Under the pieces are notes generated by a model. That model saw only the letters and a program-made list of their open reading frames with translations. It was not told the DNA's origin and did not search any database. Both the position numbers and the translations under genes were made by a program. From the NCBI RefSeq assembly GCF_900100665.1, contig NZ_FNCS01000003.1:1-64000 (forward strand): a stretch of DNA of 64,000 nt, given 5' to 3'. The stretch comes from Pelagibacterium luteolum. Its GTDB lineage: Bacteria; Pseudomonadota; Alphaproteobacteria; Rhizobiales; Devosiaceae. This document shows, piece after piece, positions 1 through 58,290 of the stretch (position 1 is its first letter; each line of letters starts with the position of its first letter).

Positions 1-343
1 CCTCGCATTCGAAGCCTATGTCGAGCAGGTTCTGGTGCCCGAGTTGCGGCCCGGCGACATCGTGATCATGGACAACCTCTCCAGCCACAAAGGAACCCGG
101 ACCCGTGAACTGATTGAGGCAGCGGGCGCATCACTCAGGTTCCTGCCGCCCTATAGCCCCAACTTTAATCCGATCGAAAACGCCTTCTCCAAACTCAAGG
201 CGATGCTTCGCAAAGCAGCAGAGCGAACCGTTGATGCGCTCTGGAACAGAATTGGCAAACTGGTCCAAACCTTCACGCCCAAAGAGTGCGCCAACTACTT
301 TGCAGCCGCTGGATACGATGCAGACTGATAGGATTCCGCTCTA
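1..343 (+). mobile_element. Right end of an IS630-family insertion sequence (partial)
   Basis: The window opens inside an IS630-type element. The transposase C-terminus stops at 328 and the likely element boundary is the CTAG at 341-344; IS630/Tc1-mariner elements duplicate a TA target, here probably 342-343. Immediately after this the sequence reads as in-frame flagellin, so the element has inserted into a flagellin gene. The left end and terminal inverted repeat lie outside the window, so the exact boundary is inferred. Confidence 0.8.
2..328 (+). CDS. IS630-family transposase, C-terminal part
   Basis: A partial DDE transposase open at the window edge. The visible 108 residues carry the second catalytic Asp in the motif DNLSSHK and the block [11 protein letters not shown], whose Glu completes the DDE triad. 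Both are hallmarks of IS630-family transposases, which cut and paste DNA into TA dinucleotides. The reading frame is open at the left edge, so no start is visible. The first possible internal start (GTG at 35) would lie downstream of most of the catalytic domain and is not a real gene start. Confidence 0.9.
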
Positions 344-5856: not shown

Positions 5857-5906
5857 CGCAAGAACTCCAGCTTCGTCATCAATCCAGTGCCCCATGCACT
5901 GAGGAA

Positions 5907-6023
5907 GGCCGATCAAGGTGGAGCGAAAATGAGTGTTTCCGAGAACCGGAGCGGAGCGTACATTTGGGTACGTGAGCACCGGAAGCGCAGGAAACGCTCA
6001 TTTGCAGCCCGCCTTCACCGGCC
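5907..6023. repeat. Structured palindromic repeat, copy A
   Basis: About 117 bp that fold into a long hairpin. The core (GAACCGGAGCGGAGCGTAC, then GTACGTGAGCACCGGAAGCG) recurs at 22283-22400 and 57115-57261. The arms AAATGAGTGTTTCC and GGAAACGCTCATTT pair with one G-U, and AAGGTGG pairs with CCGCCTT. The other copies have different arm sequences that still pair. It lies 9 bp after the flgE stop, between flgE and flgK. Confidence 0.85.
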
Positions 6024-6032
6024 GGGCGGCCA

Positions 6033-7646
6033 TTACCTCATCATGTTCAAGGCTTCTTGCATCATTTCATCCGCCGTCGAGACGATGCGGGTGCCGGCGG
6101 AGTAGGCCTGCTGGGTAACGATCAGCTTGGTGAACTCTTCCGAGATGTCGGTGTTTGACGTCTCGAGCGCCCCGCCGGTCATGCCACCATCGATCGAGAT
6201 GATCGCCTCGCCCGACTCTGCTGTCGAACTGTAGACGCCGCCATCGAGCCGCTTGAGCTGGTTTTCGGCATTGAAATTGGCGGTCACGATCTGGAACAGC
6301 TCGATCTGCTTGCCGTTCGAATAGGTCGCAACCACGCGCCCGCTGTCATTGACCGCGACGGACATGAACGACCCTGCCGGATACCCGTCCTGGGTCAACG
6401 TCGAGACCGAAGCGCGACCATTGGCGTTGTCGAACTGGGTCAGCCCACCGGCGCCCAGATCGATCTCGACATCGCCGACCACCGTTCCGTTCACAGACAG
6501 CCCGGGGATCTGAATCACCAGCGTGTCTTCGAGCGAAACTGTGCTCCCGTTGTGCCGCGACAGCACGCCATCATCGAACTCGAATTCCGCGTTCGGCACC
6601 GGCGTCCACGACTGCGGCTGCGACTTATCCATGTAGTAGAGCTGCCAGGTGTCCGGCTCGCCCGAAAGCTTGCCCCAGCGCATCTGGACGTTCACCGACG
6701 CGCCGTTCGCGGCATAGACGGTGATCGCGCCACCCTCCACAGAGCGGTTGACGAACTGGGACGCGTTCAGATGCACCGGCGGGGGCGCCGCCGCCGTCAG
6801 CGTCGTGTACATCTGCGTTGCGCCATCGCCCGAGAGCGTGATCGCGTAGTCGGCGTCGATCGGCGATACCGCCAGGCGCCCGGCTTCGTCCAGCCGCGCA
6901 TTGGCAGCGCCAGTGTTGTTCACCCAGGCAATCAGATCGTCCAGCGTCGTGCCGTCAGTACCTTCGGTAAACGTATGGGTTGTTCCATTGATGGTCATGG
7001 CGAACGTGTCGCCTGCTGTCCACCCGAGATCGGCGGCCAGCTCGGAATCGCCATCGAGCTGATCTGCGTTCGACAAAACGGTCGCAAAATCCGCTGACAG
7101 ACCGCTTGCGGGTTCGGCCGGCAGGTTCAGCTCATATTTGATCCGCCCGGTCGCCTCGGCCCCGATCAACCCGTTGGACACCTTGATCATCTGGGGCACC
7201 GAGCCCGAAACGTTACCGGTCGAGGAATCGATCGGCACACCCATCAGATAATAGCCGGCGCCGTTGCGCAGATAGCCTTCGCTATCCATCTCGAAATCGC
7301 CGCGCCGCGAATAATACTGCGCCTGCCCGAATACCGCCGCGCCATCCGAGGTCCCGGTCTTTTCGGCAACGACGAAATACCCCGACCCGTTGAGCGCGAC
7401 GTGCGTACCCGTGGGCGAAGTGACGATGTCGCCGCGCACGTCATTGGTCGAACGCGAATATCCCAGCACCGCACCCGGCACCTGCCGCCCGACTGCAGCG
7501 TCCGGGATCAGGTCGATAAACCCGGTCTCCATGCGCTTGTAGCCGGTGGTCTGCGAGTTCGCGATATTGCCCGAGATGTTCTCCAACGCAAACGACTGCG
7601 CCGCCATCCCGGTCACTGCCGTCGCCAATGCCCCATAGATACCCAT
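6033..7646 (-). CDS. flgE: Flagellar hook protein FlgE
   Basis: FlgE polymerises into the hook, the universal joint between basal body and filament. The 537-residue product has the family N-terminus (MGIYGALATAVTGMAAQ), the signature NISGNIANSQTTGYKR near residue 24, the block NGSGYFVV near residue 88, and the C-terminal flagellar basal-body motif (TEFTKLIVTQQAYSAGTRIV-like) followed by STADEMMQEALNMMR. The ATG has a GGAG site 7 bp upstream. It heads the flgE-flgK-flgL unit and is preceded by a sigma-54-like promoter at 7700-7715, matching the class of control known for hook genes in Caulobacter and Rhodobacter. Confidence 0.93.
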   Translation of the reverse strand: MGIYGALATAVTGMAAQSFALENISGNIANSQTTGYKRMETGFIDLIPDAAVGRQVPGAVLGYSRSTNDVRGDIVTSPTGTHVALNGSGYFVVAEKTGTSDGAAVFGQAQYYSRRGDFEMDSEGYLRNGAGYYLMGVPIDSSTGNVSGSVPQMIKVSNGLIGAEATGRIKYELNLPAEPASGLSADFATVLSNADQLDGDSELAADLGWTAGDTFAMTINGTTHTFTEGTDGTTLDDLIAWVNNTGAANARLDEAGRLAVSPIDADYAITLSGDGATQMYTTLTAAAPPPVHLNASQFVNRSVEGGAITVYAANGASVNVQMRWGKLSGEPDTWQLYYMDKSQPQSWTPVPNAEFEFDDGVLSRHNGSTVSLEDTLVIQIPGLSVNGTVVGDVEIDLGAGGLTQFDNANGRASVSTLTQDGYPAGSFMSVAVNDSGRVVATYSNGKQIELFQIVTANFNAENQLKRLDGGVYSSTAESGEAIISIDGGMTGGALETSNTDISEEFTKLIVTQQAYSAGTRIVSTADEMMQEALNMMR

Positions 7647-22245: not shown

Positions 22246-22282
22246 GGTGGAGATCCTGTTCGCGTGAGGTCGTTAGGTCCCT

Positions 22283-23443
<1,161 letters not shown>

Positions 23444-57114: not shown

Positions 57115-57261
57115 TTAGGATGCTTGGAGATTCAGGTCAGGGTGGAGCGAGAAGGGTGCTTAACGAGAACCGGAGCGGAGCGTACTCCAGTACGTGAGTA
57201 CCGGAAGCGCAGATAAGCGGCATTCGCAGCCCAACCTCACCTGAATATCGGGGCATCCTAA
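57115..57261. repeat. Structured palindromic repeat, copy C
   Basis: The core GAACCGGAGCGGAGCGTAC and GTACGTGAGTACCGGAAGCG matches copies A and B. The outer arms ATTCAGGT/ACCTGAAT and TTAGGATGC/GCATCCTAA pair perfectly and differ from the other copies. The last arm includes the stop codon of the phzF gene. Confidence 0.85.
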
Positions 57262-58151
57262 TCGTCGAGATCGATCATGCCTTCGGCCAGCACCACCGCC
57301 GATCCACCGATCCCCGCATGCTTGAGCACACCGCCTTCGATATTGAACTGCACCGCGATTTCGCTCGGGCGCCCCATCTCGCGCCCCTGGCGTAGTCTCA
57401 GCGCATGGTGCCCATCGCCATAAAGCCCCGAATCCGCCAGCTGTCCGATCAGCGCCGCAGCCGCCGATCCCGTCGCCGCATCCTCGCCCGACCCATGAGC
57501 GATGTGGAACATGCGCGCCGCGTAATCATTGCCGCGCTCATTGGGCGTTGCGGTGTAGACATAGACCGAGTTCCGCTCCCCCGGAAACGTATCGGCCCAC
57601 CCGCGGCGCTCGAGCGTAATCGCCTCCAGCGCCCGCGCGTCCTTGAGCGGCACGAGATAGAACGAAACCCCGGCCGAATAGCGTGACGGCATCATCCCGT
57701 CACACCCAATATCGGACGTAGCCAGCCCGAGCCGGGCTGCCACCTGATCGATATCGAGATCGCAGTCGAGCCGCTCAGGCAGATGCGGCAAGGTAAACTT
57801 CGCCTCTCCGGTACGCTTATCGGTGCGCTCCAGAACGGCCGTCACCAGCCCCACGCCCAACTCCAGCCGCACCGCGGTCAAACGCGATTGCAGCCCCAGC
57901 AGCACCGTCGCGCCCACAGTCGGATGCCCCGCAAACGGCATTTCAGTTACAGGCGAAAAAATCCGCAGCCGCGCATTGTGCCGCTCGTTCTGCGGCGCGA
58001 GCACGAACACCGTTTCGGATAGATTGAACTCCCGAGCGATCGATTGCATCCGCGCGCCAGACAGCTCGTCTGCCTTGAGCACCACAGCCAGCGGATTGCC
58101 GCTCAGCCGATCGCGGGTGAACACATCGAGGAGATAATAGGGCAACTTCAT
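57258..58151 (-). CDS. PhzF-family epimerase/isomerase
   Basis: A 297-residue protein with the duplicated PhzF/diaminopimelate-epimerase fold. It begins LPYYLLDVFTRDRLSGNPLAVV; the catalytic Glu lies in FNLSETVFVL near residue 44, and RIFSPVTEMPFAGHPTVGA and GSGEDAATGSAAAAL are family blocks. Members isomerise small metabolites; the best known is PhzF of phenazine synthesis, but most homologues have unknown substrates and no phenazine genes are nearby. The start at 58151 follows AAGGA. Confidence 0.92.
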   Translation of the reverse strand: MKLPYYLLDVFTRDRLSGNPLAVVLKADELSGARMQSIAREFNLSETVFVLAPQNERHNARLRIFSPVTEMPFAGHPTVGATVLLGLQSRLTAVRLELGVGLVTAVLERTDKRTGEAKFTLPHLPERLDCDLDIDQVAARLGLATSDIGCDGMMPSRYSAGVSFYLVPLKDARALEAITLERRGWADTFPGERNSVYVYTATPNERGNDYAARMFHIAHGSGEDAATGSAAAALIGQLADSGLYGDGHHALRLRQGREMGRPSEIAVQFNIEGGVLKHAGIGGSAVVLAEGMIDLDD

Positions 58152-58290
58152 CGCAACGTCCTTGCATCGGGGCCTCACGAACAGCGCGCGATACGCCCTT
58201 GCCAACGATGTTTAGGAGGCTTTTGATAAGGCAGCGTTAATCGCCCGGCAACATGTGTGGCAAACGCCGAAAACCGAGGGAGCAACCGCC

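What the first reader, a model, noticed from the sequence alone, without database searches (positions are those of the whole stretch)
5907..6023. A ~117-bp structured repeat with covarying arms, three copies
Copies at 5907, 22283 and 57115 share a core (GAACCGGAGCGGAGCG and GAGYACCGGAAGCGC around a small hairpin), while the flanking arms differ in sequence yet stay complementary, e.g. AAATGAGTG with CGCTCATTT against AAATGGTGATGACC with GGTCATTGCCATTT. That is compensatory change, evidence for selection on structure. It resembles RIME/Bru-RS palindromic elements in kind; I cannot assign it to a named family.
Basis: seen in the sequence. Interest (0 to 1): 0.7.

Follow-up and report, generated by a model that had tools for sequence, protein, structure and literature searches.

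The report
Mobile gene-end hairpin repeat in Alphaproteobacteria
The three repeats are copies of a widespread, apparently mobile DNA element of about 140 bases that usually sits just after the stop codon of a gene in many Alphaproteobacteria and folds into a long hairpin whose core stays almost unchanged while its arms change in matching pairs; why that strand-specific fold is kept is still unknown.

Summary
The genome holds nine model matches, not three; genus relatives hold up to 21 distinct copies, a named Mesorhizobium 44. The unit is a ~140-nt rod, often flanked by YTAR tetranucleotides, the right one commonly holding the neighbour's stop codon. Covariation is strong: 27 of 40 pairs change on both sides, 0 of 500 shuffles reach this; fixed-offset pairing holds in 184 copies. 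At orthologous loci the core differs at 6.6% of sites, arms at 26%. Wobble pairs fall on the strand antisense to the right-hand gene, whichever way the left gene runs, so host mRNA is probably not the selected molecule. Orientation also follows the chromosome in six of seven genomes tested; Agrobacterium vitis does not. One clean empty site and a 141-bp tandem pair support insertion at YTAR. No Rfam match (window and 14 loci); no Y1 transposase in the genus (0 of 13); no mobilising enzyme found. Most likely a MITE-like repeat, later kept as a strand-specific hairpin; that function is inferred. RIME, Bru-RS and CIR sequences could not be compared.

The parts
5895..6035 (+). Copy 1 (unit by core -50/+47), between flgK and flgE; right arm reaches the flgE stop codon (TTA at 6033-6035); no YTAR at the expected offsets
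   Evidence: orthologous spacer sought in 13 genomes and read in 10 of them
5945..5988 (+). Conserved core of copy 1 (CCGG/CCGG, GC/GC, GGA/GA loop, GCGTAC/GTACGT hairpin)
22272..22411 (+). Copy 2, between a 2Fe-2S ferredoxin gene and a pyridine-nucleotide-disulphide oxidoreductase gene; right arm includes the last codons of the latter; TTAG at 22273-22276 inside the left end, no YTAR at the expected offsets
22322..22364 (+). Conserved core of copy 2
57119..57257 (+). Copy 3, complete unit between YTAR tetranucleotides
57115..57118 (.). Left YTAR (TTAG) of copy 3
57258..57261 (.). Right YTAR (CTAA) of copy 3, containing the stop codon of the PhzF-like gene 57258-58205 (-)
57169..57210 (+). Conserved core of copy 3

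Best explanation
A non-autonomous, MITE-like family of about 140-nt hairpin elements in Alphaproteobacteria. SHOWN: preferred ends at YTAR; usual position beside a gene's stop codon, antisense to that gene; loci occupied in some species and not in others; a nearly invariant core with conserved internal loops; arms that diverge but keep pairing; an excess of wobble pairs on the antisense (motif) strand. INFERRED: it spreads in trans through an unidentified transposase or recombinase that uses YTAR, and settled copies are kept because the motif strand must fold. Of the possible reasons for that last step I think most likely that the fold acts in the RNA made when transcription comes from the far side (convergent read-through or antisense transcription), where a protein-binding rod stops or clears that RNA before it runs into the gene. 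I give that last step about 0.3 by itself; a folded single DNA strand is nearly as likely. The rivals below overlap with this statement, so the odds do not add up to one.
For: Ends: YTAR starting 46-48 nt after the core in 69 of 184 copies against a mean of 0.44 per 6-nt flank window; left 31 of 184 against 3.0. A clean empty site at locus 6 (G007) and a site with a single YTAR but an altered spacer at locus 20; a tandem pair in A. vitis with period 141 sharing one TTAA. Gene rule: right gene antisense in 72 of 84 copies and 36 of 43 loci, its stop usually about 48-72 nt from the centre; 25 of the 30 best of 86 copies in two Mesorhizobium genomes and A. vitis. Structure: 0 of 500 shuffles; 82.3% paired against 60.0% with right arms redealt; Watson-Crick 73% against 23-34% when slid. 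Constraint: core 95 of 1448 sites differ, arms 600 of 2294, in orthologue pairs; double changes keep pairing 167 times and fail 24 times. Strand: isolated mismatches 59 G.T against 9 A.C; one-sided changes 89 against 39; in (-,-) loci, where host mRNA should carry only the other strand, 107 against 14, or 75 against 14 without the pair that wobbles most. At the copy-2 locus the far arm matches the host gene's own, lineage-specific synonymous codons (by eye).
Against: No mobilising enzyme found: Y1 transposase 0 of 13 genomes; IS630-type DDE_3 not found in G007, G001, G006 and G012, which have copies; the DUF4096 (IS5-type) family not found in copy-rich G011 (84% complete). No gene family lies in more than 4 of 80 named loci. 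No promoter or transcript of the motif strand was shown. Most copies lack an intact YTAR on one or both sides, copies 1 and 2 of the window among them. Some orthologous sites may be repeat insertions rather than inheritance (locus 6). Orthologue pairs are not independent. The CM alignment used leans towards standard pairs, and redealt arms already give G.T/A.C 1.50 (observed 2.96). Neighbour calls rest on an ORF heuristic that disagrees between orthologues at some loci (locus 6).
Confidence: 0.45

Rival explanations
1. A hairpin read as folded single-stranded DNA: a recombinase or transposase recognises the folded motif strand and cuts and joins at YTAR, much as integron integrase reads the bottom strand of attC (recalled), and the fold is selected for mobility.
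For: Orientation follows the chromosome: 16 of 16, 19 of 21, 16 of 18 and 8 of 8 copies on one strand in G009, G008, G007 and G001 (these genomes share loci); two-arc model 21 of 22 and 39 of 44 in two Mesorhizobium chromosomes, 0 of 2000 permutations each. Motif strand more stable with DNA parameters in 38 of 39. The strand bias does not depend on host transcription direction.
Against: The strand exposed at the fork and in a transcription bubble would usually be the other one (inference). A. vitis chromosome shows no chromosomal bias (12 of 16, p 0.58). attC boxes in 0 of 184. No Y1 transposase in 13 genomes. Core conservation at old orthologous loci is unexpected for a purely selfish element.
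Confidence: 0.25
2. An ordinary MITE moved as double-stranded DNA by a YTAR/TA-target DDE transposase (IS630 or IS5 type). Arm complementarity is maintained mainly by template switching, and orientation bias is survivorship, because the more stable hairpin is tolerated only on the less exposed strand.
For: YTAR ends; IS711 is reported to duplicate TA within YTAR (PMC2266754, passages); a template-switch patch in L047; tip or core deletions in L061, L261, L285, L287 and L069, as expected of palindromes; the more stable strand lies antisense and on the C-rich strand in this genus.
Against: Terminal arms differ between subtypes, unlike transposase binding ends. In 80 named loci 3 of 62 Mesorhizobium-type ends lacked a core: two are the ends of one insert of about 0.46 kb in L147, the third lies at a sequence edge, so no transposase-sized element was seen. 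Template switching would erase the internal loops, yet they persist. Core constraint at orthologous loci.
Confidence: 0.25
3. A 3' UTR element of the right-hand gene, acting in its mRNA as terminator or end protection.
For: Position beside the stop codon; at two loci looked at by eye a separate terminator-like hairpin follows (L288, L114), so there it lies within the 3' UTR; the mRNA strand also folds.
Against: G.U pairs would be expected on the mRNA strand; the opposite is seen, also in tandem (-,-) loci, 107 against 14. RNAalifold energy -60.3 for the motif strand, -35.9 for the mRNA strand. No U tract within the consensus.
Confidence: 0.12
4. The family is an already described alphaproteobacterial repeat (RIME, Bru-RS or CIR) under another name.
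For: Same hosts and size range: CIR ~110 bp in Caulobacter, Brucella and relatives (PMC2229807, passages); GANTC occurs in 112 of 184 copies, 159 sites against 93 expected from composition.
Against: CIR RNAs are described as two arms joined by a linker with GANTC at a terminal loop; this is one rod, and 115 of the 159 GANTC sites are at two arm positions (-40, -25). RIME and Bru-RS letters were not available.
Confidence: 0.2

Closest known systems
Bru-RS1/Bru-RS2 (Brucella palindromic repeats)
   Same: Palindromic repeats in a Hyphomicrobiales genus, reported as preferred targets of IS711, whose target is YTAR (PMC2266754, passages)
   Different: Sequences not compared; covarying arms, conserved loops or gene-end antisense orientation not mentioned in the passages seen
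RIME (Rhizobium-specific intergenic mosaic elements)
   Same: About the same size, intergenic, palindromic, rhizobia (recalled)
   Different: Not compared; paper not held
CIR1-4 (Caulobacter CcrM-associated intergenic repeats)
   Same: Structured ~110-bp intergenic repeats shared across Alphaproteobacteria, with TA at termini (PMC2229807, passages)
   Different: Described as two arms with linker and GANTC in a loop; here a single rod, GANTC mainly at two arm positions of some copies
bcr1-type repeats of the Bacillus cereus group
   Same: Interspersed MITE-like repeats, often in UTRs and operon spacers (PMC3446304, passages)
   Different: Other phylum; unrelated sequence (recalled); no gene-end antisense rule known to me
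Integron attC sites
   Same: Just after the stop codon, variable arms that pair, folded antisense strand is the one read (attC side recalled)
   Different: No RYYYAAC/GTTRRRY boxes (0 of 184); copies lie beside ordinary genes such as flgE
REP/REPIN elements with RAYT
   Same: Dispersed extragenic hairpins
   Different: Longer; no Y1 transposase in the 13 genomes of the genus

Membership tests
Rfam RNA families (release 15) | covariance-model score at gathering threshold | tested here: not met
   Window: only a tRNA. Copy 1 and long-form copy L295: best scores far below gathering. 12 further loci: none
MITE (non-autonomous, IS-mobilised) | short, no coding gene, many dispersed copies | tested here: met
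MITE (non-autonomous, IS-mobilised) | target duplication | tested here: inconclusive
   YTAR enriched at both ends; one clean empty site and a period-141 tandem; many copies lack one side; 4-bp YTAR and TA cannot be told apart
MITE (non-autonomous, IS-mobilised) | terminal repeats shared with an autonomous IS | tested here: inconclusive
   No IS with Mesorhizobium-type ends in 80 named loci; not searched in whole genomes
REP/RAYT | Y1 transposase (PF01797) in the genome | tested here: not met
   0 of 13 genomes of the genus; positive in 5 of 14 control genomes
Integron attC | RYYYAAC ... GTTRRRY boxes | tested here: not met
   0 of 184 within 30 nt of the two ends; reversed order 12 of 184; box letters recalled
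Integron attC | integron integrase in the genome | not tested
CIR | GANTC at a terminal loop, two arms and linker (as described in PMC2229807, passages) | tested here: not met
   Single rod; GANTC absent from 72 of 184 copies and elsewhere mainly at arm positions -40 and -25
RIME | sequence match to published RIME1 | not testable with these tools
   paper not held
Bru-RS | sequence match to published Bru-RS1/2 | not testable with these tools
   only citing papers seen

The most novel reading that the evidence does not exclude
A chromosomal gene-end system unlike known repeats: the element is placed at the stop codon and read on the antisense single strand, as a folded DNA recombination site (attC-like in logic, unrelated in sequence) or as an antisense-RNA checkpoint, kept at each locus by selection on that strand across Alphaproteobacteria.
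Probability: 0.2. Interest if true: 0.85.

Novelty: new variant of a known kind. Interest (0 to 1): 0.55.

Why it matters
Bacterial palindromic repeats are often taken for mobile debris. Here well over a hundred natural copies give base-by-base evidence of which strand folds, at which gene ends and in which orientation, so the question whether such repeats work as RNA, as single-stranded DNA or not at all becomes directly testable. No Rfam family matched it here, and most of the plasmid records listed have no annotation under the match.

Tried and rejected
Tried without result: Rfam at gathering and permissive thresholds; full-text search for the core letters, 0 papers; papers on repeats in Sphingomonadales, rhizobia, Brucella and MITEs (capped listings), none of which, in listing or in the passages read from six papers, describes this element; phage records, no match; long-form pattern in IMG/VR, 0; Y1, DDE_3 and DUF4096 transposases as partners; a recurrent neighbouring gene; an IS with the same ends. 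A first MAFFT test of four copies misaligned because L004 was given on the wrong strand; redone with 32. A first clustering of loci read the wrong BLAST column and split every locus; redone. Considered and set aside: intrinsic terminator (no U tract in the consensus), mRNA 3' UTR function (wobble pairs on the wrong strand), attC membership (no boxes), phage origin (10 of 48 IMG/VR contigs looked at; most of the adjoining genes look, by eye, like gene transfer agent genes, one like a phage tail sheath).

Results against my reading: the A. vitis chromosome has no orientation bias; other genomes with copies on both strands, such as G059, were not tested for it; IS630 and IS5 families do not track copy number; redealt arms already show G.T/A.C 1.50; orthologue pairs are not independent; copies 1 and 2 of the window lack YTAR at the expected offsets; of nine sites compared only locus 6 is a clean empty site, the others having altered spacers, other inserts, a deleted derivative or, at locus 43, a long-form copy. 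Dropped before counts: G012 (nearly identical to G009); the second, opposite-strand matches of L047 and L059; orthologue pairs with few differences (under 6 columns, under 5 arm sites or 35 core sites); copies whose core did not fit the pattern or lay within 120 nt of an end from the 184, in which near-identical copies were kept.

Full report
WHAT IS THERE. With a covariance model built from 32 copies the 4.30-Mb genome has nine matches, one of them without the tip (L061). The window is bases 1-64000 of a 471,935-bp contig. The copies sit between flgK and flgE, between a 2Fe-2S ferredoxin gene and a pyridine-nucleotide-disulphide oxidoreductase gene, and between a gene without Pfam match and a PhzF-like gene.

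DISTRIBUTION. A strict core pattern occurs in 11 of 101 genomes, the window's own included, and a looser one in 22 of 397 genomes of the order, in 5 of 141 genera; the pattern read backwards is found in none of their rows. The model finds matches in 9 of 13 genomes of the genus, up to 22 (one of the 22 is the opposite strand of L047). Thirty-two plasmid records hold a partial match, phage records none, and 48 IMG/VR contigs match the core.

ANATOMY. Consensus of 32 copies: outer helix H1; a 3x3 loop; GGTG/CACC-type pairs with a bulged A and two or three more pairs; a GA/GCA loop; a 14-pair helix H3; a GAGAA/AAGCGCA loop; CCGG/CCGG; an A.A mismatch; GC/GC; a GGA/GA loop; GCGTAC/GTACGT; and a loop of about 4-6 nt. 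The offsets are fixed: YTAR most often ends 50 nt before the core (41-45 nt, mostly 43) and begins 47 nt after it. G007 and G008 also carry a long form with two extra hairpins in the core, whose first hairpin differs by paired changes between copies.

COVARIATION. Cells paired 95.1% against 77.9% shuffled; 27 of 40 pairs change on both sides; 0 of 500 shuffles reach any of the five measures; slid structures give 34.6-39.3%. Nine of the 12 core pairs never vary and say nothing either way. With fixed offsets and no structural alignment, 82.3% of positions pair in 184 copies against 60.0% with right arms redealt, and the Watson-Crick fraction is 69-82% in each of four source groups. At orthologous loci, in 45 pairs of copies, both-sided changes keep pairing 167 times and fail 24 times. 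The core differs at 95 of 1448 sites and the arms at 600 of 2294. Some of these loci may be repeat insertions at one hot spot (locus 6). At the copy-2 locus inheritance is clearer: the gene end (LGVA, in G002 LGVV, then stop) is kept in the seven genomes read that lack the element, and the far arm matches the gene's own synonymous codons differently in two lineages (by eye).

STRAND. Isolated mismatches inside helices are 59 G.T against 9 A.C on the motif strand in 32 copies. One-sided changes between orthologues are 89 against 39, with 67 others. The bias is in the same direction whichever way the genes run: (+,-) 70 to 11, (-,-) 107 to 14, (+,+) 13 to 5, (-,+) 10 to 0; by locus 39 to 2 with 2 ties. 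In (-,-) loci the host mRNA should contain only the other strand, so an mRNA-level function is unlikely. RNAalifold gives -60.3 for the motif strand and -35.9 for its complement. Part of the excess is compositional: redealt arms give a ratio of 1.50, observed 2.96. DNA parameters also favour the motif strand, in 38 of 39 copies, so RNA and single-stranded DNA cannot be separated this way.

POSITION AND ORIENTATION. The right-hand gene is antisense to the motif in 72 of 84 copies and 36 of 43 loci, and in 8 of 10, 8 of 10 and 9 of 10 of the best copies in two Mesorhizobium genomes and A. vitis. Where only one gene end adjoins, the right-hand antisense gene is preferred 16 to 5, 12 to 3 and 33 to 6 (p 0.027, 0.035, 1e-5); the last comes from 65 cores in named loci, 7 of which had no near gene. 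Against the chromosome: 16 of 16, 19 of 21, 16 of 18 and 8 of 8 copies lie on one strand in G009, G008, G007 and G001, which share loci; a two-arc model fits 21 of 22 and 39 of 44 copies in the Mesorhizobium chromosomes (0 of 2000 permutations) but only 12 of 16 on the A. vitis chromosome (p 0.58). Terminator-like hairpins follow the element at two loci seen by eye (L288; L114), so there it lies within the 3' UTR rather than being the terminator.

MOBILITY AND DECAY. At locus 6 the G007 site is cleanly empty with one CTAG where G008 and G011 carry the element; at locus 20 the G009 site has one YTAR and an altered spacer; the other seven sites are less clear. Between flgE and flgK the element is in G000, G007, G008, G011 and, without the tip, G001; G009 and G012 have a short GC-rich hairpin instead, and G002, G003 and G005 a short spacer; G004, G006 and G010 were not read, because the script picked another frame. 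Tandem copies have period 141 in A. vitis and about 142 in another genome. Deletions of the tip or core occur (L061, L261, L285, L287, L069). In L047 an internal loop has been replaced by the exact complement of the other arm: a template-switch-like event, which shows that part of the covariation can be mutational.

INTERPRETATION. Mobile origin, YTAR ends, gene-end antisense placement and a strand-specific fold are supported. Which enzyme moved it and what the fold does are not. Y1 transposases were not found in the genus, and two DDE families do not track copy number. I rank antisense-RNA control, single-strand DNA recognition and an ordinary MITE with template switching close together, the first slightly ahead, because core conservation at old loci and independence from the left gene are best explained by a job done at each gene end.

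KNOWN OR NEW. No Rfam match in what was searched. The paper searches showed no description of it in the listings or passages seen. Bru-RS, RIME and CIR are the nearest in kind; CIR differs in described shape (PMC2229807, passages); the other two could not be compared. I therefore call it a new variant of a known kind, with about one chance in five that it is already named.

Noticed in passing
chromosomes G001, G007, G008, G009 (samples L088-L107, L309-L368, L436-L455); window: GC skew is nearly one-signed round the chromosome: 16 of 20, 17 of 20, 16 of 20 and 35 of 40 samples share one sign (the 40 of G009 are not evenly spaced), and all 8 window bins are negative, whereas 20 samples of a Mesorhizobium chromosome average about -0.009. 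The element lies on the C-rich strand. Very unequal replichores or another bias could explain it.
   Followed up: partly
L047 (G008) against L033, L039: A template-switch-like patch turned an internal loop of the palindrome into a perfect inverted repeat.
   Followed up: partly
L295, L296, L283, L284 (G007, G008): Long form of about 222 nt with two extra hairpins in the core; L295 and L296 have near-identical cores while their outer arms differ but still pair.
   Followed up: partly
L475, L482, L484, L469, L495, L478, L464, L466, L487, L496 (IMG/VR): In 8 of 10 'viral' contigs looked at, of 48, the element lies 58-76 nt from an antisense gene end; by eye (no family search) most of these genes look like gene transfer agent capsid, tape-measure or terminase genes.
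   Followed up: partly
window 8-232: IS630-type DDE_3 fragment at the contig edge.
   Followed up: no
L114: Two consecutive genes in a Mesorhizobium each carry their own copy at the 3' end, same orientation (by eye).
   Followed up: no
L313 (G009): A different insertion bounded by CTAG at the site where relatives carry this element.
   Followed up: no
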